From Herbaspirillum autotrophicum (GTDB taxonomy: Bacteria; Pseudomonadota; Gammaproteobacteria; Burkholderiales; Burkholderiaceae_D), in the NCBI RefSeq assembly GCF_001189915.1, contig NZ_LFLS01000008.1:124001-188000 (forward strand): a DNA stretch of 64,000 bases. The letters run 5' to 3'. The position numbers were made by a program, and so were the translations under genes. Within the stretch, counting starts at the first letter, position 1. The number at the start of each line of letters is the position of its first letter. Of the stretch, positions 31,509 to 56,215 are shown piece by piece. The notes below the pieces were generated by a model that saw nothing but the letters and a program-made list of their open reading frames with translations, ran no database searches and was not told the origin of the DNA.

Positions 31509-32835
31509 ACTTGGCCGCCTGGCGTTTCACTTTGCCCGCACCCGCTGGCGTCTGAAATTCAGAAACCGGTCCGCGCTGGAAGCCTGGCAAGCGCGTCAGA
31601 TCAAACGTTTTCTCGCGACACAATTGCCGCGTACGGCGTTTTACAGCCGCTTCACCGGCAGCACGCTGGCGCAATTGCCGGTCATCGACAAGAGCGTGAT
31701 GCTGGCCAATTTCGCCCACATGAATGATGCCGGCATTACGCTCGACGAAGCGACTTCGGTGGCATTGGCAAGCGAAGCCTCGCGCGATTTTGCCCCCTCC
31801 TTGCGCGGCGTTACCGTCGGTTTGTCGAGCGGCACGCAAGGTCCGCGCGGCATCTTCATGGCGTCCGATCAGGAGCGCAGCAAATGGGCCGGCATCATGC
31901 TGGCGCGGGTGTTACCGCCGGAACTGCTGCGACATCTGCTGACCGGCGGCCCCGGCGGCGCGCCGATCCGGGTGGCATTTTTTCTGCGCGCCAACAGCAA
32001 TCTCTATACGACGCTCAACAGCAAGCGTGTCGATTTCCGTTTTTATGATTTACTGCATGGCCTCGACGTCTACCTGGAACAGGTGCAACAGCATGCGCCG
32101 GATATTCTGGTAGCACCGGCACGCATTCTCGGCCGCCTCGCCGAACTGCAACTGGCCGGCAAGATCAGGTTGCAACCGCGGCGCGTGATCGCCGTGGCCG
32201 AAGTATTGGAACCGGATGACCGGCAGCGCATAGCGCAAGCCTTTGGCGGACTGGTACATCAGCTATACCAATGCACCGAAGGATTTCTCGGCTATACCTG
32301 CGAGCATGGCGTGATGCATCTCAATGAAGAGTTTGTACACATCGAGCCGGAATGGCTGGATCAGGAGCGCAAGCGTTTCGTGCCGATCGTGACCGACTTC
32401 ACGCGCACCACGCAGCAGGTGATTCGCTATCGGCTCAACGATATCTTGCGGGTGCGCGACGCGCCCTGTACCTGTGGTCGCGTGACCATGGCGCTGGAAG
32501 CGATCGAAGGCCGCTGCGACGATATTCTGTGGTTGCCGCGCAGCGACAACGGCGACATCGGCGCGCTCTACCCGGACATGTTGCGTCACGCCGTCACCAC
32601 CGCGCCGCATGCCTTGCCCGACTACCGGATTGAACAACACGGCCTGACCTTGCATATCGCGGTCAGCGGTGACGCGGCTTCAGCGCAGCAGGTCTTGATC
32701 CATGCCATCACGGCAGTGGCGTTGCGACATGGCTTGCAAGTGCCGGCATGTGCGGCGATGCCATTCGTGGATACCGACCTGCATGTCAAACGCCGCCGCA
32801 TCATTTGCCGCCAGCGTCCGTCCCGTCAATCCTGA
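31495..32835 (+). CDS. adenylate-forming ligase, F390-synthetase/PaaK-like
   Basis: A 446-aa protein of the ANL superfamily, in the branch with phenylacetate-CoA ligase and coenzyme F390 synthetase-like proteins. Visible features are the P-loop-like SSGTQGPRGIFMAS, LYQCTEGFLGYTC in the adenylate-binding position, RYRLNDILRVRDAPCTCGR and IEGRCDDIL near the hinge. The ATG at 31495 lies 14 bp inside the MBL gene; the open frame extends slightly further up. In a KAS III/OleD-type operon it occupies the place of OleC (beta-lactone synthetase) but is only a distant relative. Its stop overlaps the convergent speH stop region by 10 bp. Confidence 0.85.
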   Translation: MKLPELGRLAFHFARTRWRLKFRNRSALEAWQARQIKRFLATQLPRTAFYSRFTGSTLAQLPVIDKSVMLANFAHMNDAGITLDEATSVALASEASRDFAPSLRGVTVGLSSGTQGPRGIFMASDQERSKWAGIMLARVLPPELLRHLLTGGPGGAPIRVAFFLRANSNLYTTLNSKRVDFRFYDLLHGLDVYLEQVQQHAPDILVAPARILGRLAELQLAGKIRLQPRRVIAVAEVLEPDDRQRIAQAFGGLVHQLYQCTEGFLGYTCEHGVMHLNEEFVHIEPEWLDQERKRFVPIVTDFTRTTQQVIRYRLNDILRVRDAPCTCGRVTMALEAIEGRCDDILWLPRSDNGDIGALYPDMLRHAVTTAPHALPDYRIEQHGLTLHIAVSGDAASAQQVLIHAITAVALRHGLQVPACAAMPFVDTDLHVKRRRIICRQRPSRQS

Positions 32836-33197
32836 GTGGCGTTGCCGCGCGCAATATTCTTGATATCGGTGGAGCTTGGCTGCAACGCCGCCTGAATCAC
32901 TGCCAGTGCGCGTTGCGGCGCGGCACTGCCGCACATGAAAATGTCGGCGGCGACGAATCCGGCTTCCGGCCAGGTGTGAATCGACATATGCGATTCCGCC
33001 AGCAGCAGCACGCCGGTGACGCCCTTGCCGCGACCGAAACTGTGGAAATGACCGTGAACAACGGTGGCGCCGGCGGCCTGTGCGCTTTGTCGCAATAATG
33101 CTTCAATCGCCGCCACCTGCGTCAGGATCTCGCCGGTGACGCCATACAGATCTGCCAGCAAATGTTGCCCGGCCGGTTTATGCAGCGTTGCACTCAC
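32826..33197 (-). CDS. speH: S-adenosylmethionine decarboxylase proenzyme (SpeH type)
   Basis: A 123-aa pyruvoyl enzyme that makes decarboxylated AdoMet, the aminopropyl donor for polyamines. Self-cleavage is expected between Glu68 and Ser69 (LLAESHMSIH), with the catalytic Cys89 in DIFMCGS and His52 in HGHFHSF. The GTG at 33197 has GGAGG at 6 bp and overlaps the previous stop as GTGA. An earlier start would run back into the neighbour's Ser/Gly-rich coding region. It is the last gene of the DUF350-SPFH-DUF4178-small-protein arm and supplies the donor for the aminopropyltransferase transcribed in the opposite direction at 36.4 kb. Confidence 0.95.
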   Translation of the reverse strand: MSATLHKPAGQHLLADLYGVTGEILTQVAAIEALLRQSAQAAGATVVHGHFHSFGRGKGVTGVLLLAESHMSIHTWPEAGFVAADIFMCGSAAPQRALAVIQAALQPSSTDIKNIARGNATQD

Positions 33198-33373
33198 TTG
33201 TGGCCTCCGCCCGAACTGCTCCACGAACCGCCGCTGCTGCCGGTGCTGGAACTCCAGCTGCTGCCGCTGCTGCTGCCACCGGTAGTGCCGGCCATCATGG
33301 CCATGCGGCCCCAGTTGGAACACGTGGAAAGTGCCGTGACCAGCAAGGCGTAAATGATGAATTTACCGTTCAT
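33194..33373 (-). CDS. small Ser/Gly-rich membrane-anchored protein
   Basis: A 59-aa protein. An N-terminal hydrophobic segment (NGKFIIYALLVTALSTCS) acts as a signal or membrane anchor, with a Cys that could be a lipobox variant. The rest is a low-complexity tail built from SSS, GSSW and SGG units, ending GGGHK. The ATG at 33373 overlaps the DUF4178 stop by 4 bp, and its stop overlaps the speH GTG. Nothing catalytic is visible. The tight coupling on both sides argues that it is a real structural or adaptor component of the module. Confidence 0.75.
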   Translation of the reverse strand: MNGKFIIYALLVTALSTCSNWGRMAMMAGTTGGSSSGSSWSSSTGSSGGSWSSSGGGHK

Positions 33374-34833
33374 TTCTTGTCGCCGCCAAACGTGTCGATA
33401 AATTTCGCCGGCAGATAGACCGCTGCCAGTCCCAATGCCGTGAACAGCCACGATGTCTTGAATGAAAACAGCATCGGAATCGCATTCAGGATCAGGATGA
33501 TCCAGATGAACACCTTGGCAGTCGCCCCCAGCTTTCTTTTTTCGAGCGGTTTGCCGTTGCCCGGCTTGATGCTGGCGCCGAACCAGGCCTTGATCTGATC
33601 GTCAGGCACCGGAGAAGAAAATGACCAGGTGATTTCTTCGGCAGTCATCTCTGCGGCCAGACGGTCTTGCCTGTTTTCAAACTCGACCACCTTGACCTTG
33701 TCGCCGGTCACCACTTTCCAGTTGAATGCGCCGGCCGCAAACACGACCTCGGCATCATATTCATACAGTTTGCGGAAAGCCCGGTTGCCAATCGCGGCGG
33801 TATCGCCGAGATCCCATACCGGCCAGTCTTCGCGCGCCTGTGAGCGTGACCAGCCATCTTCGGTTTCAACCAGCCACAAGAAACCGGCGCGTTCGCTGTG
33901 CAACAGATACTCGGTCCATTTGCTGCCTTCATCATCACGGCGCAACATGAGACCGATGATTTCGTACTGCTTGCCGGCAATCGCGCCACGGGCACCAAGT
34001 TCCAGCGTCGTCGATACGGCCTTGACGCGCTCGCCGGCGGCCAGCACTTGCGCCACCACACCGCTGGTATCCACCTCGGCATGACAGGACGGGCATAGCA
34101 GATGGGTGGTCAAACCCGGTACATAGCTGACACTGGTGCCGCACGACGGGCAATTGAGCGGCGCCACCTTGCCATCGAATTTGCCGGCGCTGGCCTGAAT
34201 CACATCATCCTCACGCAGCAACTGGCAATTCAGCTGATCGAGCGCTACCGCCACACCGGCATAGATTTTCGGTGGTCCGGCATCGGAATAATCGAGCGTG
34301 ACAAACTTGCTGCCGCGCCGGAAATCGGCAACCCGTGCTTGCCAGCCCTGATGCACGCTGAATGGCAACTCGCCCTGACCGCCGATGCAGTCGGCGGTGC
34401 GAATATCGCTGGCAACATATTGCTCAGCGGCGATGACATAGGCGTGCGCAGGCGTCAGCGCCGTGAATTCCGGCAAGCCCGTGCTGTCTGCCGGCGGCGT
34501 TTGCGCAGTAGTCAGCGTGTACAGGCCGGAGGCATCCGACAGCCATGATTCGCGGCCATCTTCGGTGTACAGATACCATTCGTTCCAGATACCGGCCGGA
34601 TAACGCAACTGGATCCGGCCGATCACGGTAAATGCGCGGCCATCCTGGACACCGCTGGTGCCGATCTGGATCGGTGAATAATCCTGCAGCACATCCGACA
34701 TCCTGCCGATGTCCTTGACGCTGTCAGCATCTTTCAGAATGGTGGTTTTACAGAATTCGCATACCGCCATGACCGAGGCGTGCGAGCGGAACGCAACCTG
34801 CGCGCCGCAGCTGGGACAAGAAACGTTCTGCAT
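33370..34833 (-). CDS. DUF4178 protein with two zinc ribbons and C-terminal membrane hairpin
   Basis: A 487-aa protein. An N-terminal zinc ribbon (CPSCGAQ...CEFC) is followed by a first DUF4178 domain (about 50-190). A second ribbon (CPSCGTS...CPSCH) and a second DUF4178 domain (about 270-400) follow. Near the C-terminus are two membrane helices (VFIWIILILNAIPMLFSF, LFTALGLAAVYLPA). The function of DUF4178 is not established. The gene regularly sits with SPFH, DUF350 and polyamine genes, as here. A gap of 33 bp separates it from the SPFH gene; it overlaps the small protein gene by 4 bp. Confidence 0.9.
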   Translation of the reverse strand: MQNVSCPSCGAQVAFRSHASVMAVCEFCKTTILKDADSVKDIGRMSDVLQDYSPIQIGTSGVQDGRAFTVIGRIQLRYPAGIWNEWYLYTEDGRESWLSDASGLYTLTTAQTPPADSTGLPEFTALTPAHAYVIAAEQYVASDIRTADCIGGQGELPFSVHQGWQARVADFRRGSKFVTLDYSDAGPPKIYAGVAVALDQLNCQLLREDDVIQASAGKFDGKVAPLNCPSCGTSVSYVPGLTTHLLCPSCHAEVDTSGVVAQVLAAGERVKAVSTTLELGARGAIAGKQYEIIGLMLRRDDEGSKWTEYLLHSERAGFLWLVETEDGWSRSQAREDWPVWDLGDTAAIGNRAFRKLYEYDAEVVFAAGAFNWKVVTGDKVKVVEFENRQDRLAAEMTAEEITWSFSSPVPDDQIKAWFGASIKPGNGKPLEKRKLGATAKVFIWIILILNAIPMLFSFKTSWLFTALGLAAVYLPAKFIDTFGGDKK

Positions 34834-34866
34834 GAATTAAAAGGCGAAAGGAATCAAGAGCTGGTT

Positions 34867-35919
34867 CTACCCGATCAGTTTCTTGAGCAATTCGCTCTTG
34901 GCGCTGTCGTAGTCGGCAGCGGAGATCAAGCCCTTATCAAGCAACTGCTTGAGCTGCTCCAGACGGTCGGCAATCGGCACTTCCGCTGCCGGCGCGGTTG
35001 CCGGCGCCTGAGGTGCTGCTGGCGTGGCAACGCCTTCCGGTGCAATCGCCTCCTTCATGCCTTGCGCCAGCACCTGCCCCATCGCCAGACCGGATGACAA
35101 ACCGGCGCCGATGCCCGCCAGACCACCTTCATTCTGCGCCGCCAGCGGCACCGAGGTAGCCACTTGAAAACGCGTGAAGCCGGCCATCTTGTCGGCACCG
35201 AGTCCGCCCTTCATACCGGCTGCGATACGCTCGTCGAGGGCTGCCTGCAGTTCGTCCGGCAGGCTGACGCTGGCGACATTGAATTCATCGAGACCGATAC
35301 CGTACTTGCCGAACGCTTCCGCCAGATCGCCTTTGACCTGTTGCGCCATCAAGGCCTGATTGGCAGCCATATCGAGAAACGGCACATTGGCGCCGCCGAG
35401 CGAACTGGCCATGGTCGCCAGCAACAGGCCGCGCAACTGTTCTTCGACGTCATCGCGTGTATATACCTCACGGGTGCCGCTGATTTTGGTGAAGAACAAT
35501 TTCGGATCGGTCACGAAATAGGAATACATGCCGAAGGCACGCACCCGGATCATGTCGAAATCCTTGTCGCGGATCGTGATCGGTTGCGGCGTGCCCCACT
35601 TGCGCCCGGTCTGCACCCGGGTGCTGAAAAAATAGACATCCGACTTGAAAGGCGAGTCGAACAGCTTGTCCCAGTTCTTGAGATTGGTCAGCACCGGCAA
35701 GGTGTTGGTGGTCAGCGTGTAGTTGCCCGGTCCGAAAACGTCGGCAATCTGTCCTTCATTGACGAACACCGCCAGTTGCGACTCGCGCACGGTCAGCGCG
35801 GCGCCGCTCTGAATTTCAAAGTCCTGCATCGGAAAACGCCAGGCCAGTACGCCTTCGGTGTCTTCATTCCATTGCAGTACGTCAATGAACTGTTTCTTGA
35901 TAAATGAACCGAGACTCAT
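34867..35919 (-). CDS. SPFH/Band 7 protein with C-terminal SHOCT domain (YdjI-like)
   Basis: A 350-aa protein. An SPFH-like domain covers about residues 30-250 (MSLGSFIKKQFIDVLQWNED at the start, GNYTLTTNTLPVL, RVRAFGMYSYFV, DEFNVASVSLPDEL). A Gly/Ala/Pro-rich linker leads to a SHOCT domain (RLEQLKQLLDKGLISAADYD). SPFH proteins form ring-like membrane scaffolds. No N-terminal membrane helix is seen, so this one may attach through partners. The ATG at 35919 is preferred to an upstream frame that lacks a ribosome site. Confidence 0.92.
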   Translation of the reverse strand: MSLGSFIKKQFIDVLQWNEDTEGVLAWRFPMQDFEIQSGAALTVRESQLAVFVNEGQIADVFGPGNYTLTTNTLPVLTNLKNWDKLFDSPFKSDVYFFSTRVQTGRKWGTPQPITIRDKDFDMIRVRAFGMYSYFVTDPKLFFTKISGTREVYTRDDVEEQLRGLLLATMASSLGGANVPFLDMAANQALMAQQVKGDLAEAFGKYGIGLDEFNVASVSLPDELQAALDERIAAGMKGGLGADKMAGFTRFQVATSVPLAAQNEGGLAGIGAGLSSGLAMGQVLAQGMKEAIAPEGVATPAAPQAPATAPAAEVPIADRLEQLKQLLDKGLISAADYDSAKSELLKKLIG

Positions 35920-35944
35920 GATGTTTTCCCGTGGAGTGAAGGAA

Positions 35945-36331
35945 TCAGGAAATGCAGGCCGCGTTGATCGCGCCGAGGCAAAGCGAAACTGCACCGATCA
36001 GGCCGCCGAAGGCAGTATTGCCGGACTCGATGTGCTCCTTCGAGATATGCAACAGTTTGGTGGTCACCGCGTAGGCCAGCACCTGCACTACCAGCGCTCC
36101 GGCCGCCCAGGCCAGAAATTCCTGATAACTGGCGGTATGCAGGATGGCCGAAGCCACCGTCAGCGAGAACCCGATCATGGCGCCGCCGAGCGACAGGGCG
36201 GCAGCATTGTTGCCCTGCCGGATCAGCAAAATTTCATCGAATGGCGTGACCCAGGTGTAGATGCGGAAAAATACCAGCAATAAAACCGCTGCCAGTAATA
36301 AATGAATAATGTAATTGGCAATTGGTGGCAA
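35945..36331 (-). CDS. DUF350 (YjfL-type) membrane protein
   Basis: A 128-aa protein with four membrane helices: IIHLLLAAVLLLVFFRIYTW, then ALSLGGAMIGFSLTVAS, FLAWAAGALVVQVLAYAV and FGGLIGAVSLCLGAINAACI. YjfL/DUF350 proteins have no known activity. It is the first gene of the leftward arm; its start is 56 bp from the divergent aminopropyltransferase start, so one short intergenic region controls the whole module. Confidence 0.9.
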   Translation of the reverse strand: MPPIANYIIHLLLAAVLLLVFFRIYTWVTPFDEILLIRQGNNAAALSLGGAMIGFSLTVASAILHTASYQEFLAWAAGALVVQVLAYAVTTKLLHISKEHIESGNTAFGGLIGAVSLCLGAINAACIS

Positions 36332-36365
36332 GGCGATCTCACACTGAGAGGGTAATTTTCGGTAC

Positions 36366-36371
36366 TATACT
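36366..36371 (+). promoter_or_regulatory. possible -10 box for the aminopropyltransferase gene
   Basis: TATACT lies 16 bp before the ATG at 36388 in the 56-bp divergent gap, within an AT-rich TACTATACTAAT stretch. No convincing -35 element is seen at the proper distance. Confidence 0.35.
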
Positions 36372-36387
36372 AATCGAAAAAAAACCT

Positions 36388-37899
36388 ATGACCAATCGAA
36401 TTCTCGTTCTCTCCATTTTTGTCGTTGCCTCGTGCGGATTGGCCTATGAGCTGATTGTCGGCGCGCTTTCCAGCTATCTGCTGGGCGACTCGATCCTGCA
36501 GTTTTCCACCATCATCGGCTGTTATCTGTTTGCCATGGGCGTCGGTGCCCATCTCTCCAAATATGTCAAAGATGAAGACGTGCTGTCGCGCTTTGTCGAT
36601 ATCGAGCTGGCAGTTGGTTTGATCGGTGGTGTTTCGGCGGCCTTGTTGTTCATTTCCTTTTCCTGGTCGGCAGCGCCCTTTCGCACCTTGCTGTACTTGA
36701 TGGTGTTCATGATCGGCGCCATGGTCGGCATGGAAGTGCCACTCGTGATGCGGGCACTCAATGCACGTCAGACTGCTTTCAAGGAATTGGTCAGCACCGT
36801 GCTGACCTTCGATTATCTCGGCGCGCTGGCAGTCTCGCTGCTATTCCCGCTGGTGCTGGCACCGCATCTGGGGCTGACCCGCACCGGCTTTCTGTTCGGT
36901 ATGTGCAATGTCGGGGTTGCCTTGTGGACCATTTACACCTTCCGCGCCGAACTCAAGAATGTTGCCATGCGCATGTTGCGCGCCTGCTTTGTGCTGTGTC
37001 TGCTGATCGTCGGCTTTGCCATGTCGGACCGGCTGGTGGCGTGGGGCGAACACGGCATGTTCGGCGATGAAGTGGTGTATTCGACCTCGACCCCGTATCA
37101 ACGGCTGGTGATCACGCGCTGGAAAGATGACTTGCGCCTGTACATCAATGGCAATCTGCAATTTTCCTCGCGCGACGAATATCGCTATCACGAAGCGCTG
37201 GTGCATCCGGCGCTGGAAGCCTTGCCGTGGGCCCGCTCGGTACTGGTGCTGGGCGGCGGCGATGGTCTCGCGTTGCGCGAAATTCTGCGTTATCCGAATA
37301 TCAGACAGGTGACGCTGGTCGATCTCGATCCGGCCATGACCAAGGCCTTCGCCCAACGCCCGGAACTGGTCAAGCTCAATCACGGTGCGCTCAATGATCC
37401 GCGCGTCAAGGTGATCAATACCGACGCTGCCATCTGGCTGCAAAAAAATGCAGACATGTTTGATGCCGCGATCATCGACTTCCCCGACCCGTCCAGCTTT
37501 GCGCTCGGCAAACTGTTTTCGGTCCCGTTCTACGGCATTCTGCAAAAACATGTCGCCGCCAACGGCCTGATCGTGGTGCAGGCCACCTCGCCCTACTTCG
37601 CACCACATGCCTATTGGTCGATTGACGCCACACTGCGCGAGGTCGGTTTGCGCACCTATCCGTATCACTTGTATGTGCCATCGTTCGGCGAGTGGGGATT
37701 CATTCTGGCCTCGCCTCAGCAAGACTATCGCCCGCCGACGCAATTCCGGCTGCCGATGCGGTATCTGAACGCCGAGACCACGCGCGAGATGTTCACCTTC
37801 CCGCCTGACATGCCGCGCCTCGATGTGGAACCGAACCGCCTCAACAATCAATCGCTGGTGCATTACTTTGAACATGACTGGCGTCAGGTGATTCGCTGA
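36388..37899 (+). CDS. membrane-embedded spermidine synthase-like aminopropyltransferase
   Basis: A 503-aa protein. Residues 1-215 form about seven membrane helices. Residues 225-500 form a spermidine synthase domain: TPYQRLVI, YHEALVHP (267-274), the dcAdoMet-binding GGGDG (289-293), LVDLDPAM, and FPDPSSFALGKLFS. It is expected to transfer an aminopropyl group from decarboxylated AdoMet, made by the SpeH at the far end of the module, to an amine near the membrane. Whether the acceptor is putrescine or something else is unknown. The ATG at 36388 follows a short gap from DUF350; the flavoprotein start overlaps its stop (TGATG). Confidence 0.92.
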   Translation: MTNRILVLSIFVVASCGLAYELIVGALSSYLLGDSILQFSTIIGCYLFAMGVGAHLSKYVKDEDVLSRFVDIELAVGLIGGVSAALLFISFSWSAAPFRTLLYLMVFMIGAMVGMEVPLVMRALNARQTAFKELVSTVLTFDYLGALAVSLLFPLVLAPHLGLTRTGFLFGMCNVGVALWTIYTFRAELKNVAMRMLRACFVLCLLIVGFAMSDRLVAWGEHGMFGDEVVYSTSTPYQRLVITRWKDDLRLYINGNLQFSSRDEYRYHEALVHPALEALPWARSVLVLGGGDGLALREILRYPNIRQVTLVDLDPAMTKAFAQRPELVKLNHGALNDPRVKVINTDAAIWLQKNADMFDAAIIDFPDPSSFALGKLFSVPFYGILQKHVAANGLIVVQATSPYFAPHAYWSIDATLREVGLRTYPYHLYVPSFGEWGFILASPQQDYRPPTQFRLPMRYLNAETTREMFTFPPDMPRLDVEPNRLNNQSLVHYFEHDWRQVIR

Positions 37900-39509
37900 T
37901 GCAACGCCGTTCTTTTCTGCTGGCGGCCGCTGGCGGCACTGCCGTCACACTGGGCGCCGCAGCCGGCTTGTGGCGCTGGCAGGAAATTCCCGCCAGCGTA
38001 CGTTATCCGGGCCGCACTGAAGGCCACTTTCTGCGCGACCGCAAGGCGCTGCCGGCGCCGGCCCGGACACTCCGGACGGATGTCCTGATCCTCGGCTCCG
38101 GCATTGCCGGCTTGACCGCCGCCTGGAAACTCAATCGCAGCGGCCGGCGCGACTTCCTGCTGATCGACGGTCCCGAGCCGGACGGCAATGCTGCCGGCGG
38201 CCAGTTCGGCGATCTGGCCTATCCGACCGGTGCGCATTATCTGCCGCTGCCATCCACCGAGTCATTTCATGTGCGCGAAATCCTGCATGATCTCGGCATT
38301 CTGCTGCGCAATCCGGAAAGCGCCCGTCCGTATTATGACGAACGCTATCTGCTGCATGCGCCGGAAGAGCGTCTCCTGATCGATGGTGTGTGGCAAGAAG
38401 GTCTGGTGCCGAATACCGACGCCAATGCCGAAGAGCTGGCGGAACAAACCCGTTTCGGGCAGCAGATAGCGCATTTGCGCAACTTGCGCGACAGCACCGG
38501 CCAGCGCATTTTCACGCTGCCGTCAGTCAATTCCAGCCAGGATCCGGAGTGGCAGACGCTGGATCAGATCAGCATGAAAAACTGGTTGCAGCAAAACGAC
38601 TATCGTTCGCCGCGCCTGCATTGGTATGTGAATTACGGTTGCCGTGACGACTATGGCAGCAACTACGATCAGATTTCGGCGTGGGCCGGCCTGCATTATT
38701 TTTGCAGCCGCAACGGACAGGCCGAAAACGCCGACGACGGCGCCTGGCTGACCTGGCCGGGCGGCTTGCAAGCGGTCGCCAGCGGTCTGCGCGGCACGCT
38801 CGGCAAGAACACCCGAAGCGGCACCTGCATCTCGCTGCGGCAAACTGCCGGCGGGGTTGAGGCACTCTGCATGCAACTGCGCGATGGGGTGCCGCAGACG
38901 TACACCGTGCAGGCACGCAAGGCGATCTGCGCCATGCCCTTGATGGTGGCCGCGCGCGTGGTGGAAAACATGGCCGCTTTCGGTTTCGATCCGCAGCAGC
39001 ATATGCCGGCGTATGCGCCATGGCTGGTGGCCAATTTCCTGCTGCGGCAATTCCCCGCAGAATTACCGGAAGCGCCGTTGTCGTGGGATAACGTGGTGTA
39101 TCAGGAGCCGGGCCTCGGTTATGTGGTGTCCACGCATCAGGACATCCGGGTGCAACCGCCGCCAAAAACCGTCTTCAGCGCGTATGTGGCGCTCAGCGAC
39201 CGTAGCCCGGAAGCGGCCCGGCAATGGCTCGGTCAAGCCACGGCCGACGAGTTGCTGACACTCGCCAGCACCGATCTGAAATCAGCCTATGGCTGGAAAC
39301 TGGCATTGTGCGCCGAACGCGTCGACATCACCGTGCGCGGCCATGCGATGGCGATTCCGCGCCCCGGGTTTCGCAGCAATGCCGGCGTGCGGCGTTTGCG
39401 TGAAGCCGATGGCGCGATTCTGTTCGCGCATGCCGACCTGTCCGGCTTTTCGGTATTCGAAGAAGCTTCGTGGTGGGGTTATCAGGCGGCGCTGCGGGCA
39501 ATCGCCTGA
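37899..39509 (+). CDS. FAD-dependent amine oxidase-like flavoprotein with Tat-type signal
   Basis: A 536-aa flavoprotein. The N-terminus [13 protein letters not shown], with a hydrophobic stretch, fits a twin-arginine signal, suggesting export as a folded FAD protein. The dinucleotide motif [16 protein letters not shown] starts near residue 63. A C-terminal FAD segment reads [21 protein letters not shown]. The fold is of the NAD(P)/FAD oxidoreductase or polyamine-oxidase type. Next to AdoMet decarboxylase and aminopropyltransferase, a polyamine is a reasonable substrate, but this is inferred from context. Its start shares one base with the previous stop. Confidence 0.85.
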
Positions 39510-53597: not shown

Positions 53598-55298
53598 TCA
53601 GAACTGTTCCCAGTCGTCATCCTTGCCGGCACTCGCCACAGTTGCGGCCGGTGCGGCAATGCTCCTTGCCTCGCGCGACTTGAGCGCCGGCCGTTTCGGT
53701 GTGATATCGACACTGGAACGCACAGCGGCCTGCGGTACATGCGCCACCTGATTTTGGTCGATCTTGAATACACTGACGATCTGCAACAAACCGGCGGCCT
53801 GATCCTGCAACGATTGCGCAGCGGCGGCAGCTTCCTCTACCAGCGCTGCATTCTGTTGCGTGACCGTATCCATTTGCGTCACCGCCTGATTGACTTGCTC
53901 AATGCCTTCGCTTTGTTCGCGGCTGGCCTCCGTGATTTCACCGACGATATCGGTGACGCGCTTGACGCTGTTGACCACTTCCTGCATGGTTGAACCAGCC
54001 TGCGACACCAGACGGCTGCCGGAATCCACTTTCTCGACCGAATCATCGATCAGCGTTTTGATTTCCTTGGCGGCTGCCGCACTGCGTTGGGCCAGGCTGC
54101 GCACTTCCGATGCCACCACCGCAAAGCCACGTCCCTGTTCGCCGGCGCGTGCTGCCTCGACCGCCGCATTCAAGGCCAGAATATTGGTCTGGAATGCGAT
54201 GCCATCGATCACGCTGATGATATCGACAATTTTCTTCGAGGAAGCATTGATGGCATCCATGGTATCGACCACTTTGCCCACCACGTTGCCGCCCTGCACT
54301 GCCACCGCCGAAGCCGACTCTGCCAGTTGATTGGCTTGCCGCGCATTGTCGGCATTCTGGCGTACAGTCGATGTCAGTTCTTCCATCGACGATGCAGTTT
54401 CTTCCAGCGAACTGGCTTGCTGTTCGGTACGCGAAGACAAATCCAGATTGCCGGTCGCGATCTGACTTGATGCCGTGGCGATGGTATCAGTGCCACGTCG
54501 TACCTGACCGACGATGTTGAGCAGATTGTCATTCATGGCTTTGAGCGCACGCATCAGTTGCCCGGTTTCATCTTTGCCGCCGGATTCGATTTGCGATGTC
54601 AGATCGCCGGACGCCACTGTCTCCGCCAGCCGCACCGCGTGGTTGATCGGCGTGGTGATGCTGCGCGTCACCAGCAACGCAATGACACCTGCCAGAACGA
54701 TGGCAATCGCACTCAGCGCCACCATCAGATTGCGCGCCAACAGATATTCACGCGTCACTTCCTCGCCGGCATCGTGCATCAGCTGATTCTGATGCTGGAT
54801 CAGATCATCGACCACCTTCATATAGGTTTGCTGTATCGGCCGTACCGTTTGCAACAGGAAAATGGTGGCACCGGTTTTGTCGTTGTCTTGCACCAGCCGG
54901 ATGACTTCCGTGAGCGAGTCGTTGTAACGGGTACGCGAATCCATGATGTTTTTCATCAGCGCACGTCCGATGTCGCCATCAATCACACTGTCCAGCTTGG
55001 TCAGTACATCGCCATTTGACTTGCTAGTCTGCGCAATGAGGTCGATTTCTTTCTGGATTTGCTCCGGCGCACTCATCAAGAGTGTGTTGCGGGAGGAGCG
55101 GGCAATCAGATTCAGGTTGTCGATGATTTTATTGGCCAGCACCGTTTTCGGATATTTGTCATTGACGACATCCTGCATCTGTTTGTTCAGGTCTGCCAAG
55201 CGGGCAGTCCCCAGCGTGGCGATTGCCACCAACAACAACAACAAAAAGCCGAACCCGATTCCCAATCGGACGCCAATTTTCAAATTTGTAATGCGCAT
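53598..55298 (-). CDS. methyl-accepting chemotaxis protein with CheR/CheB tether
   Basis: A 566-aa chemoreceptor. TM1 (about 10-30) follows MRITNLKIGVRLGIGFG. A four-helix-bundle sensor lies in the periplasm, TM2 is at about 190-212 (MVALSAIAIVLAGVIALLV), then HAMP and the signalling coiled coil with the tip [20 protein letters not shown]. The tail ends DDDWEQF, close to the NWETF-type pentapeptide that recruits CheR/CheB; the window's other receptor lacks it. The ATG at 55298 follows AAGGGGA. It is inserted, with the XRE gene, between gloA and rsmA, which are adjacent in related genomes. Confidence 0.94.
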   Translation of the reverse strand: MRITNLKIGVRLGIGFGFLLLLLVAIATLGTARLADLNKQMQDVVNDKYPKTVLANKIIDNLNLIARSSRNTLLMSAPEQIQKEIDLIAQTSKSNGDVLTKLDSVIDGDIGRALMKNIMDSRTRYNDSLTEVIRLVQDNDKTGATIFLLQTVRPIQQTYMKVVDDLIQHQNQLMHDAGEEVTREYLLARNLMVALSAIAIVLAGVIALLVTRSITTPINHAVRLAETVASGDLTSQIESGGKDETGQLMRALKAMNDNLLNIVGQVRRGTDTIATASSQIATGNLDLSSRTEQQASSLEETASSMEELTSTVRQNADNARQANQLAESASAVAVQGGNVVGKVVDTMDAINASSKKIVDIISVIDGIAFQTNILALNAAVEAARAGEQGRGFAVVASEVRSLAQRSAAAAKEIKTLIDDSVEKVDSGSRLVSQAGSTMQEVVNSVKRVTDIVGEITEASREQSEGIEQVNQAVTQMDTVTQQNAALVEEAAAAAQSLQDQAAGLLQIVSVFKIDQNQVAHVPQAAVRSSVDITPKRPALKSREARSIAAPAATVASAGKDDDWEQF

Positions 55299-55336
55299 TC
55301 TGTTCCCCTTGTTAACAACGGCACTTGTGGTGCCAA

Positions 55337-55358
55337 TGCATATCGACACCGATATGCA
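55337..55358. repeat. perfect inverted repeat upstream of the chemoreceptor gene
   Basis: TGCATATCG-ACAC-CGATATGCA, perfect 9-bp arms with a 4-bp spacer, lies 38 bp before the chemoreceptor start. It could be a repressor site or a 5'-leader hairpin. Confidence 0.5.
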
Positions 55359-55777
55359 GCGTTTCAATCATGCGTTTTGTCCTGCTACGCGGTAACGTAA
55401 ATTTCCATAGAACGGCGTCGATTCCGTTCAGCGGATATGGCAACTTCATTTATTGAAAAAGTAAAAGAAACCCGGGTGCATGCATCAAGGACGCACTTCC
55501 TGCATACGGCATTTCTCATGTTTTGGAGAATTGTCGAGACCACCGTCTGAGGCTGTGCCATCAAACTATAGCCCGCTTCTTGTATACAAGCAGCAGTCTT
55601 GACAGGGGGACTTGCGCGCTGCGCATAACGGCAACGTTGCCAAATCAATACGATGGTCTAGTATGGTTAGTGGAGCCATATCAAGTTGCGACCTCCCCCG
55701 GCGTATATGCCCCGTTTCGTCAGGATTCTTGCCGGACGGGAAATATTGCTTGTGAACCTCGCTTTTATATCAATATT

Positions 55778-55837
55778 TTGCGTATTACGCAATATTAGAC
55801 CGATAAATTTGTCTTAAAAACTTTGCTCGTTACGCAA
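55778..55837. promoter_or_regulatory. two operator-like palindromes upstream of the XRE gene
   Basis: Site 1 is TTGCGTATTACGCAA (55778-55792), a perfect 7-1-7 palindrome. Site 2 is TTGCTCGTTACGCAA (55823-55837), the same right half with a degenerate left half. The right halves with flank (TTACGCAATATT) are identical. Centres are 45 bp apart, and site 2 ends 21 bp before the ATG. This is the classic layout for autorepression by a lambda-repressor-like protein. Confidence 0.65.
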
Positions 55838-55858
55838 TATTGGCGGGAGAATTGACAA

Positions 55859-56215
55859 ATGAATATCGGTCACGTCCTACGCAGGATACGAAAAGAAAAA
55901 AATGCGAGCCTGGAAGAAATTGCGTTGTCCGCAGGGACCGACGCGGCCAATTTATCCCGCGTGGAACGCGATAAACAACGATTGACACCAGATATGCTGG
56001 AAAAGGTAGCAAAGGCACTCGATGTGCCGGTTTCTTCGCTTTATTTGATTGCCGAGCAGAACACCCGGGAACAGGATAACAGGCAAGAGCCGATCGACAG
56101 AAGCACCGCAGCCCGACTCGAAAACTGCATAGGAAAATTCATGTTGCTGTCCGGAAATGATCAGCAACTGGTTATCGATTTTATGGATTTGCTGCGGCAG
56201 TCATCGCGTCAGTAA
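55859..56215 (+). CDS. XRE-family transcriptional regulator
   Basis: A 118-aa protein. The N-terminal 60 residues are a Cro/CI-type helix-turn-helix (VLRRIRKEKNASLEEIALSAG, then AANLSRVERDKQRLTPDMLEKVAKALDVP split over two helices). The rest is a polar linker and a helical tail (LLSGNDQQLVIDFMDLLRQS). The ATG follows GGGAGAATT. Two matching palindromes upstream suggest autoregulation. No toxin or partner gene lies next to it; rsmA converges from the right. Codon use is AT-richer than the core genes, consistent with acquisition. Confidence 0.9.
   Translation: MNIGHVLRRIRKEKNASLEEIALSAGTDAANLSRVERDKQRLTPDMLEKVAKALDVPVSSLYLIAEQNTREQDNRQEPIDRSTAARLENCIGKFMLLSGNDQQLVIDFMDLLRQSSRQ

What the first reader, a model, noticed from the sequence alone, without database searches (positions are those of the whole stretch)
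32826..39509. Seven-gene polyamine/SPFH membrane module with no established function
Seen: two divergent arms across a 56-bp gap. Left arm: DUF350, SPFH-SHOCT, DUF4178 with two zinc ribbons, a Ser/Gly-rich 59-aa membrane peptide, SpeH; the last three genes are chained by GTGA/ATGA overlaps. Right arm: a seven-helix membrane spermidine synthase and a Tat-signal flavoprotein sharing a TGATG junction. Known: SpeH makes decarboxylated AdoMet, SpeE-type domains use it, and SPFH proteins are membrane scaffolds. I recall this gene set recurring in other bacteria without an assigned role. Inference: aminopropylation happens at the membrane with scaffold proteins, and the exported flavoprotein oxidises the product or a related amine.
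Basis: partly seen in the sequence, partly recalled or inferred. Interest (0 to 1): 0.75.

Follow-up and report, generated by a model that had tools for sequence, protein, structure and literature searches.

The report
Membrane aminopropyltransferase and its lysine-tailed peptide
A recurring bacterial membrane gene set that carries the machinery for adding an aminopropyl group also encodes a tiny membrane peptide whose last residue is almost always lysine, which makes that lysine a strong candidate for the enzyme's unknown target.

Summary
Related PspA and band-7/SHOCT polyamine operons are in print without a known substrate (Ravi 2024; Li 2019, recalled). What I add concerns the 59-aa peptide. 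It ends in His-Lys, and 80 of 81 assessable DUF4178 loci carry a short membrane peptide, or a DUF4178 C-terminal fusion, ending in Lys (HK or GK) while the rest varies. The Ser-rich partner in the PspA form (21 of 21) and two neighbours of enzyme paralogues also end in Lys. DUF1190 lipoproteins, the partners of peptide-spermidine ligases, end in Gly-Gly or Gly-Ser (22 of 22). I found no second AdoMet decarboxylase or spermidine synthase in the window's genome. Best explanation: SpeH makes decarboxylated AdoMet and the 7-TM aminopropyltransferase transfers its aminopropyl group to the C-terminal lysine, giving a membrane-tethered, spermidine-like tail; a Tat-exported amine-oxidase-like flavoprotein may trim or oxidise it. 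The genes and the tail rule are shown; the chemistry, and the periplasmic site suggested by topology, are inferred.

The parts
32826..33197 (-). SpeH, S-adenosylmethionine decarboxylase (GTG start overlapping the peptide stop); the only one found in the genome
   Evidence: Pfam AdoMet_dc 4.6e-35, TIGR03330 above cut-off, one match in the whole genome
33194..33373 (-). 59-aa single-TM Ser/Gly-rich peptide, proposed aminopropyl acceptor
   Evidence: position-only test of relatives
33197..33202 (-). Codons for the C-terminal His-Lys of the peptide (CAC AAG), before the TGA at 33194-33196
   Evidence: Codon view; relatives use CAC or CAT, AAA or AAG, and TGA, TAA or TAG
33370..34833 (-). DUF4178 protein, two CxxC zinc-ribbon-like pairs, two predicted C-terminal TM segments; in 7 relatives the HK tail is fused to its C-terminus
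   Evidence: Pfam; fusions in L013, L047, L050, L060, L062, L064, L131; TM segments
34867..35919 (-). SPFH (Band 7) protein with C-terminal SHOCT domain, probable membrane scaffold
   Evidence: Band_7_1 4.1e-74, SHOCT 4.6e-7
35945..36331 (-). DUF350 (YjfL family) membrane protein
   Evidence: Pfam 3.8e-32
36388..37062 (+). N-terminal membrane domain (about residues 1-225): seven long helices read as TM, and an amphipathic helix
   Evidence: AlphaFold model pLDDT 89.5, pTM 0.67; hydropathy and charge pattern
37063..37899 (+). C-terminal aminopropyltransferase domain (about residues 226-503)
   Evidence: Z 35.1 to T. thermophilus triamine/agmatine aminopropyltransferase, rmsd 2.2, 276 aligned (3anx_A); conserved site in 53 of 53 aligned proteins
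37899..39509 (+). Tat-signal FAD protein of amine-oxidase fold, proposed to act on the aminopropylated product
   Evidence: Model pLDDT 91.4; best folds putrescine oxidase, monoamine oxidase, spermidine dehydrogenase; R3 invariant and R4 at least 90% in an alignment of 31 chosen proteins, the window's included

Best explanation
The module tags the C-terminus of a small membrane-anchored protein with an aminopropyl group. SpeH decarboxylates AdoMet. The 7-TM enzyme transfers the aminopropyl group to the side-chain amine of the conserved C-terminal lysine, which is chemically the aminobutyl half of putrescine; the product, N6-(3-aminopropyl)-lysine (+57.06 Da), is a spermidine-like group tethered to the membrane by a variable, often Ser/Gly-rich stalk. 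SPFH/SHOCT and DUF4178 (PspA and DUF2170 in the sister form) hold the complex at the inner membrane with DUF350, and the Tat-exported flavoprotein, where present, oxidises or removes the group. Shown: the genes, their recurrence, the Lys tail, its association with this enzyme and not with the ligase type, the conserved catalytic site, and no second SpeD or SpeE found in this genome. Inferred: that the lysine is the acceptor, the side of the membrane, the flavoprotein's substrate, and an envelope-stress role.
For: (1) Position-only test, blind to the last residue: 72 loci have a short TM ORF directly after DUF4178, and 70 of these have one ending in Lys; the other 2 are fusions. Altogether 80 of 81 assessable DUF4178 loci. 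Among 809 other long ORFs of these loci 35 end in Lys, 0 in HK, 4 in GK. (2) Fusion of the HK tail to DUF4178 in 7 loci where no separate peptide was found. (3) Partners of other sequence also end in Lys: 21 of 21 Ser-rich proteins of PspA-type operons, two proteins beside enzyme paralogues (L166, L167), and the 7 plasmid loci with a module among 8 fetched of 16 matching records. (4) Contrast: 22 of 22 DUF1190 lipoproteins end GG (19) or GS (3); the ligase type follows in 18 of these (15 profiled; L169; E. coli YjfC and YgiC by annotation). Of 79 genomes of one order, 21 have the enzyme and 18 have DUF1190, none both (P 0.0016 if independent, not tree-corrected). (5) Site residues invariant in 53 of 53. 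(6) One AdoMet decarboxylase and one SpdSyn-type gene found in the genome; carboxynorspermidine decarboxylase model 29.9 bits against 409. (7) Of 17 genomes whose enzyme locus lacked DUF4178, 16 carry it elsewhere; in an even draw of the class 5 of 229 have it. (8) Codons and stops vary.
Against: No chemistry was tested. A conserved C-terminal Lys could be a binding or sorting signal. Where enzyme and DUF4178 genes are apart, the peptide lies beside DUF4178, not beside the enzyme, which fits a DUF4178 partner as well as a substrate. The L048 genome has enzyme and DUF4178 but no Lys-tail peptide beside DUF4178 (L132); the L083 genome has the enzyme but no DUF4178 match and no Lys-ended small TM ORF in its 21.5-kb locus. 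Lys ends also occur without a tail: the window's own DUF4178 and three relatives, 8 of 65 flavoproteins. The flavoprotein was found in 61 of 85 loci. A periplasmic catalytic domain needs decarboxylated AdoMet outside the cytoplasm, for which I know no route; two fusions (L062, L064) show an even number of TM segments, which would put the tail inside. Many loci are related, so counts are not independent.
Confidence: 0.55

Rival explanations
1. The enzyme aminopropylates a membrane lipid or a small diamine; the Lys-ended peptide is a regulator or docking partner whose tail is recognised but not modified.
For: The fold is that of free-amine aminopropyltransferases. PMC11237479 proposes that polyamines or aminopropylation alter membrane structure (passages read).
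Against: Does not explain why partners of different sequence all end in Lys, nor why the last residue is Gly or Ser beside the ligase-type enzyme.
Confidence: 0.2
2. The terminal Lys is a structural or sorting motif read by DUF4178, SPFH or PspA partners and is unrelated to aminopropyl transfer.
For: The peptide gene sits next to DUF4178 even where the enzyme gene is elsewhere, and fuses with DUF4178. L015, of the PspA form, also has a DUF4178-like protein (24.6 bits against a cut-off of 25).
Against: In the ligase-type operons, DUF350 is shared (L169; YjfL in E. coli) but the tails end in Gly or Ser, so the Lys goes with the enzyme or DUF4178, not with DUF350. L166 and L167 have a Lys-ended neighbour beside an enzyme paralogue; DUF4178 was not looked for there.
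Confidence: 0.15
3. Ordinary spermidine synthesis carried out at the membrane.
For: SpeH and the aminopropyltransferase domain keep their catalytic residues; NCBIfam calls the enzyme polyamine aminopropyltransferase.
Against: Li et al. 2019 (abstract recalled; only the citation seen) reported that such fusions do not replace spermidine synthase and that spermidine is absent. The peptide, DUF4178, SPFH and DUF350 partners are unexplained.
Confidence: 0.07
4. The flavoprotein is the main enzyme: it oxidises the terminal Lys (allysine-like) for cross-linking, and aminopropylation protects or primes it.
For: Tat signal and amine-oxidase fold.
Against: Found in only 61 of 85 loci; no hit in the 20 kb of the PspA-type locus L015. 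The other PspA-type loci were seen for about 1.5 kb on each side only.
Confidence: 0.03

Closest known systems
PspA/CesT-Tir and band-7/SHOCT polyamine operons (Ravi et al. 2024, PMC11237479; passages read)
   Same: One described operon has PspA-CesT/Tir, the 7TM spermidine-synthase-like protein, DUF350, DUF4178 and a lipoprotein; a described variant of the ATP-grasp operons has band-7+SHOCT, AdoMet decarboxylase and polyamine oxidase. The paper suggests monitoring of polyamines or of aminopropylation of other substrates.
   Different: The window combines features of the two; I did not see that exact set spelled out in the passages. They do not mention a short Lys-ended peptide, the fusion or a tail rule, and the word lysine does not occur in the main text.
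MFS-SpdSyn fusion with AdoMet decarboxylase (Li et al. 2019, Biochem J 476:2579; abstract recalled, only the citation seen)
   Same: Same kind of enzyme, linked with DUF350; a substrate other than putrescine was proposed.
   Different: As recalled, the substrate was left open. The present data offer a specific candidate.
E. coli YgiB/YgiC and YjfM/YjfC (peptide-spermidine ligase; Pederick et al. 2023, title seen in reference lists only)
   Same: Ser/Gly-rich tailed DUF1190 protein beside a polyamine-conjugating enzyme; YjfM/YjfC also with DUF350 and a PspA-family protein.
   Different: Ligase of another family (GSP_synth); tails end GG, or GS in three relatives, never Lys in 22 seen.
Thermus thermophilus triamine/agmatine aminopropyltransferase (1uir, 3anx)
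   Same: Same catalytic fold, Z 35.1, 28% identity.
   Different: Chains of 309-312 residues that align with the catalytic domain only (model residues 219-499); no counterpart of the seven-TM part in the alignment.
Hypusine formation on eIF5A (recalled)
   Same: A protein lysine given a polyamine-derived chain.
   Different: Donor there is spermidine's aminobutyl group, on an internal lysine in the cytoplasm.

Membership tests
Canonical SpeD/SpeE spermidine pathway | AdoMet decarboxylase with pyruvoyl-precursor motif | tested here: met
   TIGR03330 above cut-off; ESHxxxH[TS][WFY]PE in 52 of 55 module SpeH ORFs, the window's with ESHxxxHTWPE; of the other 3, L021 is cut by the contig edge and L062 and L064 read ESHxxxHTWGE. 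That this is the precursor motif is recalled
Canonical SpeD/SpeE spermidine pathway | Aminopropyltransferase fold with conserved donor and catalytic residues | tested here: met
   the role of each residue is recalled from spermidine synthases
Canonical SpeD/SpeE spermidine pathway | Soluble enzyme without membrane domain | tested here: not met
   Seven long hydrophobic helices in the model
Canonical SpeD/SpeE spermidine pathway | Putrescine is the acceptor | not testable with these tools
   Li 2019, recalled, says such fusions do not complement
PSP-linked polyamine operons (Ravi 2024) | 7TM-SpdSyn protein with DUF350 and DUF4178 | tested here: met
PSP-linked polyamine operons (Ravi 2024) | PspA-CesT dyad in the operon with the 7TM-SpdSyn protein | tested here: not met
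   Neither PspA nor DUF2170 among the seven proteins or the adjacent gene; PspA elsewhere in the genome was not searched. The sister locus L015 has both
PSP-linked polyamine operons (Ravi 2024) | Variant with band-7+2TM+SHOCT, AdoMet decarboxylase and polyamine oxidase (given in the paper as a variant of the ATP-grasp operons) | tested here: inconclusive
   Band-7 and SHOCT in one protein and SpeH by sequence, oxidase by fold only; the 2TM segment was not checked and there is no ATP-grasp protein
Peptide-spermidine ligase systems (YgiBC/YjfMC) | ATP-grasp (GSP_synth) ligase in the operon | tested here: not met
   No such domain among the seven proteins
Peptide-spermidine ligase systems (YgiBC/YjfMC) | Partner tail ending in Gly-Gly (or Gly-Ser) | tested here: not met
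   Tail ends His-Lys
Polyamine oxidase | Amine-oxidase fold | tested here: met
   Pfam Amino_oxidase 24.9 bits against 19.8
Polyamine oxidase | Oxidises a polyamine | not testable with these tools
   No assay

The most novel reading that the evidence does not exclude
A new post-translational modification: aminopropylation of the C-terminal lysine of membrane-anchored tails by a membrane-embedded, possibly periplasm-facing aminopropyltransferase. Together with the peptide-spermidine ligase systems it would mean that bacteria evolved two chemistries, matched by the last residue of the tail (Lys or Gly), for making polyamine-tipped envelope proteins. The boldest extension is that the cationic tip acts as a tethered plug or sensor on the shared DUF350 membrane protein or on anionic lipids.
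Probability: 0.5. Interest if true: 0.87.

Novelty: new variant of a known kind. Interest (0 to 1): 0.76.

Why it matters
The acceptor of this membrane aminopropyltransferase family has been open in print: the 2019 paper (recalled) and the 2024 survey (passages) suggest a substrate other than putrescine but, in what I saw, name none. A peptide with a nearly invariant C-terminal lysine, encoded with the enzyme or with its DUF4178 partner in several phyla, makes the question testable with one mass-spectrometry experiment. If right, it would be a kind of protein modification for which my searches found no description, and would give PspA- and SPFH-linked envelope modules a common theme: polyamine-tipped membrane tails.

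Tried and rejected
Chance or overlap as the cause of the HK ending: rejected, because His, Lys and stop codons vary and several genes do not overlap the next one. Circularity: the first scans looked for Lys-ended ORFs, so I repeated the search by position alone, with 77 unique tails (64 HK, 13 GK), is again conditioned on Lys. A distinguishing active-site residue against putrescine: dropped, because the Thermus aminopropyltransferase shares it. A general lipoprotein reading of the peptide: 1 of 72 separate peptides has a strict lipobox, plus L192 and L194 by eye. The membrane domain was not searched alone, so no fold relation to MFS is claimed. A search with one 48-aa peptide in the genomes behind L048 and L083 gave an unrelated weak hit for the first and none for the second. 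Of the 19 loci without a DUF4178 hit, 17 were followed into their genomes; L015 and L051 were not. L140 (contig ends in DUF4178) is left out of the 81; L199 (truncated enzyme, no module) out of the plasmid count; 8 further matching plasmid records were not fetched. The 809 background ORFs are long non-overlapping ORFs, not checked genes. Literature: aminopropyl-lysine and related terms 0 papers; a four-of-five-term search unrelated paper; DUF4178 1 paper. The library holds open-access papers only.
Full report
The observation. The window holds seven genes in two divergent arms as described: on the minus strand DUF350, SPFH/SHOCT, DUF4178, a 59-aa peptide and SpeH, on the plus strand a membrane aminopropyltransferase and a flavoprotein. 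The 56-bp gap, the ATGA and GTGA overlaps and the TGATG junction are confirmed. The window lies in a 6.0-Mb genome (99.98% complete). The closest aminopropyltransferases, at 78-82%, are in L017-L035, with titles such as Massilia, Duganella, Janthinobacterium and other Oxalobacteraceae.

Recurrence. One scan of named genomes with an alignment of five aminopropyltransferases returned the 80 best loci; more exist. With the window and four other loci (85 in all), iterative profiles found DUF350 in 64, SPFH in 57, DUF4178 in 66, SpeH in 55 and the flavoprotein in 61; some loci are cut by contig ends. The window's divergent order is seen in 31 of the 80 (L017-L043, L047, L050, L053, L060, reading L042 as the same order with overlong ORF calls). 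Loci titled Acidobacteria, Gemmatimonadetes, Fibrobacteres, Elusimicrobia and the Bacteroidota genera Solitalea and Chitinophaga have other orders. Of 19 loci without a DUF4178 hit I followed 17 into their genomes: 16 carry DUF4178 elsewhere. In an even draw of the class 5 of 229 genomes have DUF4178 (4 over the cut-off), and all five have the enzyme within the fetched 16-20 kb (and the window).

The tail. The window peptide ends Gly-His-Lys. Listing short TM ORFs that directly follow DUF4178, without looking at their last residue, gave a candidate in 72 loci; in 70 of them one ends in Lys, and the other two (L013, L064) are loci where DUF4178 itself ends HK. Of 79 candidate ORFs 71 end in Lys; of the 8 others six lie in another frame in loci that also have the Lys one, and two are those of L013 and L064. 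Five more loci have the tail fused to DUF4178 (L047, L050, L060, L062, L131), and L071, L081 and L094 have a Lys-ended peptide that scores below the hydrophobicity threshold of 1.2 (0.82, 1.09, 1.18). So 80 of 81 assessable loci; L140 is cut by the contig end and L132 is the exception. Penultimate residues are His or Gly (77 unique tails: 64 HK, 13 GK, conditioned on Lys); at positions 3 to 15 from the end, compared without gaps, 14-42% of pairs agree. Among 809 other long ORFs of these loci 35 end in Lys, none in HK and 4 in GK; 8 of 65 flavoproteins and, without a fused tail, 4 DUF4178 proteins (the window's, L022, L030, L033) also end in Lys. Codons vary between CAC/CAT and AAA/AAG and the stops between TGA, TAA and TAG. 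Of 16 plasmid records matching the enzyme I fetched 8; one has a truncated enzyme and no module, and the other 7 have a Lys-ended partner: HK in Burkholderia and two Novosphingobium, GK in Gemmatirosa, Ensifer and Alteromonas, VK in Tritonibacter (three read by eye from frame translations). In Novosphingobium sp. ES2-1 the 48-aa peptide is annotated as a hypothetical protein between DUF4178 and DUF350.

The tail goes with the enzyme. In one order 21 of 79 genomes have a PspA-type relative of the enzyme. L015, the query locus, carries DUF350, Spermine_synth, DUF2170, PspA and a DUF4178-like protein just below cut-off. The Ser-rich protein two genes upstream of the enzyme, a lipoprotein by its start in L015 (in the others the start lies outside the locus), ends RGK (20) or GGK (1) in 21 of 21 (ORFs listed without regard to ending, L157 picked by eye). 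Two enzyme paralogues have other neighbours, ending GGSRGGK and GSHSKGK, without a Pfam family over cut-off. As a contrast I took DUF1190 lipoproteins, the partners of YgiC and YjfC, annotated peptide-spermidine ligases: YjfM and YgiB, L168 and L169 and 18 more end GG in 19 and GS in 3, Lys in none. The next gene is GSP_synth in 15 of those 18 and in L169; in L168, L180, L184 and L187 it was not seen. In the 79 genomes none has both the enzyme and DUF1190 (21 and 18; P 0.0016 if independent, no tree correction), as expected of alternatives, though kinship may explain it.

The enzyme. The model (pLDDT 89.5, pTM 0.67) has seven long N-terminal helices, an amphipathic helix and an aminopropyltransferase domain, best matched by the Thermus triamine/agmatine aminopropyltransferase (Z 35.1) and thermospermine synthase (34.1), with spermidine synthases at 32.0 and below. 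The GGGDG motif, D263, E264, Y267, D314, D346, D364, D367 and Q398 are invariant in 53 aligned proteins (roles recalled). Loops after TM2, TM4 and TM6 carry 2.8, 3.7 and 3.5 Lys+Arg per sequence (and 2.2, 2.0 and 0.8 Asp+Glu), the counted residues between TM1 and TM2 no Lys or Arg, and the stretch after TM7 2.2 Lys+Arg and 4.0 Asp+Glu. The loops after TM3 and TM5 were not counted separately. By the positive-inside rule the N-terminus is inside and, after seven helices, the catalytic domain outside. For the tail the evidence is mixed: lipobox-bearing partners (L015, L192, L194, L198; by eye) and fusions with three (L047, L050, L060) or one (L013) TM segments point outside, two fusions (L062, L064) with two segments do not. 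Modification before export, as a cytosolic ligase in the sister system would need, is possible too.

Supply. The genome has one AdoMet decarboxylase and one spermidine-synthase-type gene by Pfam search, both here, and no carboxynorspermidine decarboxylase over the cut-off (29.9 bits against 409). Decarboxylated AdoMet made by SpeH thus has one evident user, the membrane enzyme.

Flavoprotein. Its model (pLDDT 91.4) resembles putrescine oxidase, monoamine oxidase, protoporphyrinogen oxidase and spermidine dehydrogenase at 13-18% identity; an amine substrate is plausible, which one is unknown.

Prior work. Ravi et al. 2024 (PMC11237479; passages of the main text) describe a PspA operon with the 7TM enzyme, DUF350, DUF4178 and a lipoprotein, and, as a variant of the ATP-grasp operons, a band-7/SHOCT form with AdoMet decarboxylase and polyamine oxidase; they propose that such systems monitor polyamines or aminopropylation of other substrates. 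The window combines both. Li et al. 2019 is not held; I recall its abstract (fusion does not replace spermidine synthase, spermidine absent, DUF350 linked) and saw only its citation. Pederick et al. 2023 was seen as a title in reference lists, with a mention of YgiC and YjfC as peptidylpolyamine synthetases in PMC12568646. Searches for aminopropyl-lysine terms gave no paper.

Verdict. The gene set is a known kind. The tail rule, the fusion and the enzyme-linked last residue are, as far as these searches show, new, and point to a specific substrate.

Noticed in passing
L166:355-1176 and L167:466-1062: Paralogous membrane aminopropyltransferases have unrelated-looking neighbours that also end in Lys (GGSRGGK, GSHSKGK); a wider family of Lys-tailed partners may exist.
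   Followed up: partly
Genomes: The aminopropyltransferase (21 of 79) and DUF1190 (18 of 79) never occur in the same genome of this sample, also within families that hold both kinds.
   Followed up: partly
L014 and L198:7944-14602: In L014 a TelA-like ORF (by eye) and in the Alteromonas plasmid locus a gene annotated toxic anion resistance sit inside the module, linking it to Ter/TelA-type stress genes.
   Followed up: no
DUF4178 hits of the survey: Stand-alone DUF4178 proteins often end in acidic residues: 43 of 80 hits end in Asp or Glu.
   Followed up: no
L185, L186, L187: Three DUF1190 lipoproteins end Gly-Ser instead of Gly-Gly, a possible variant of the peptide-spermidine ligase tail.
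   Followed up: no
window:31468-32835: F390-synthetase-related adenylate-forming protein (TIGR02304, 427 bits) convergent with SpeH, overlapping it by 10 bases.
   Followed up: no
window:10001-12000 and 54001-56000: Two stretches of lower GC (0.499 and 0.521, against 0.56-0.63 in the other 2-kb windows).
   Followed up: no
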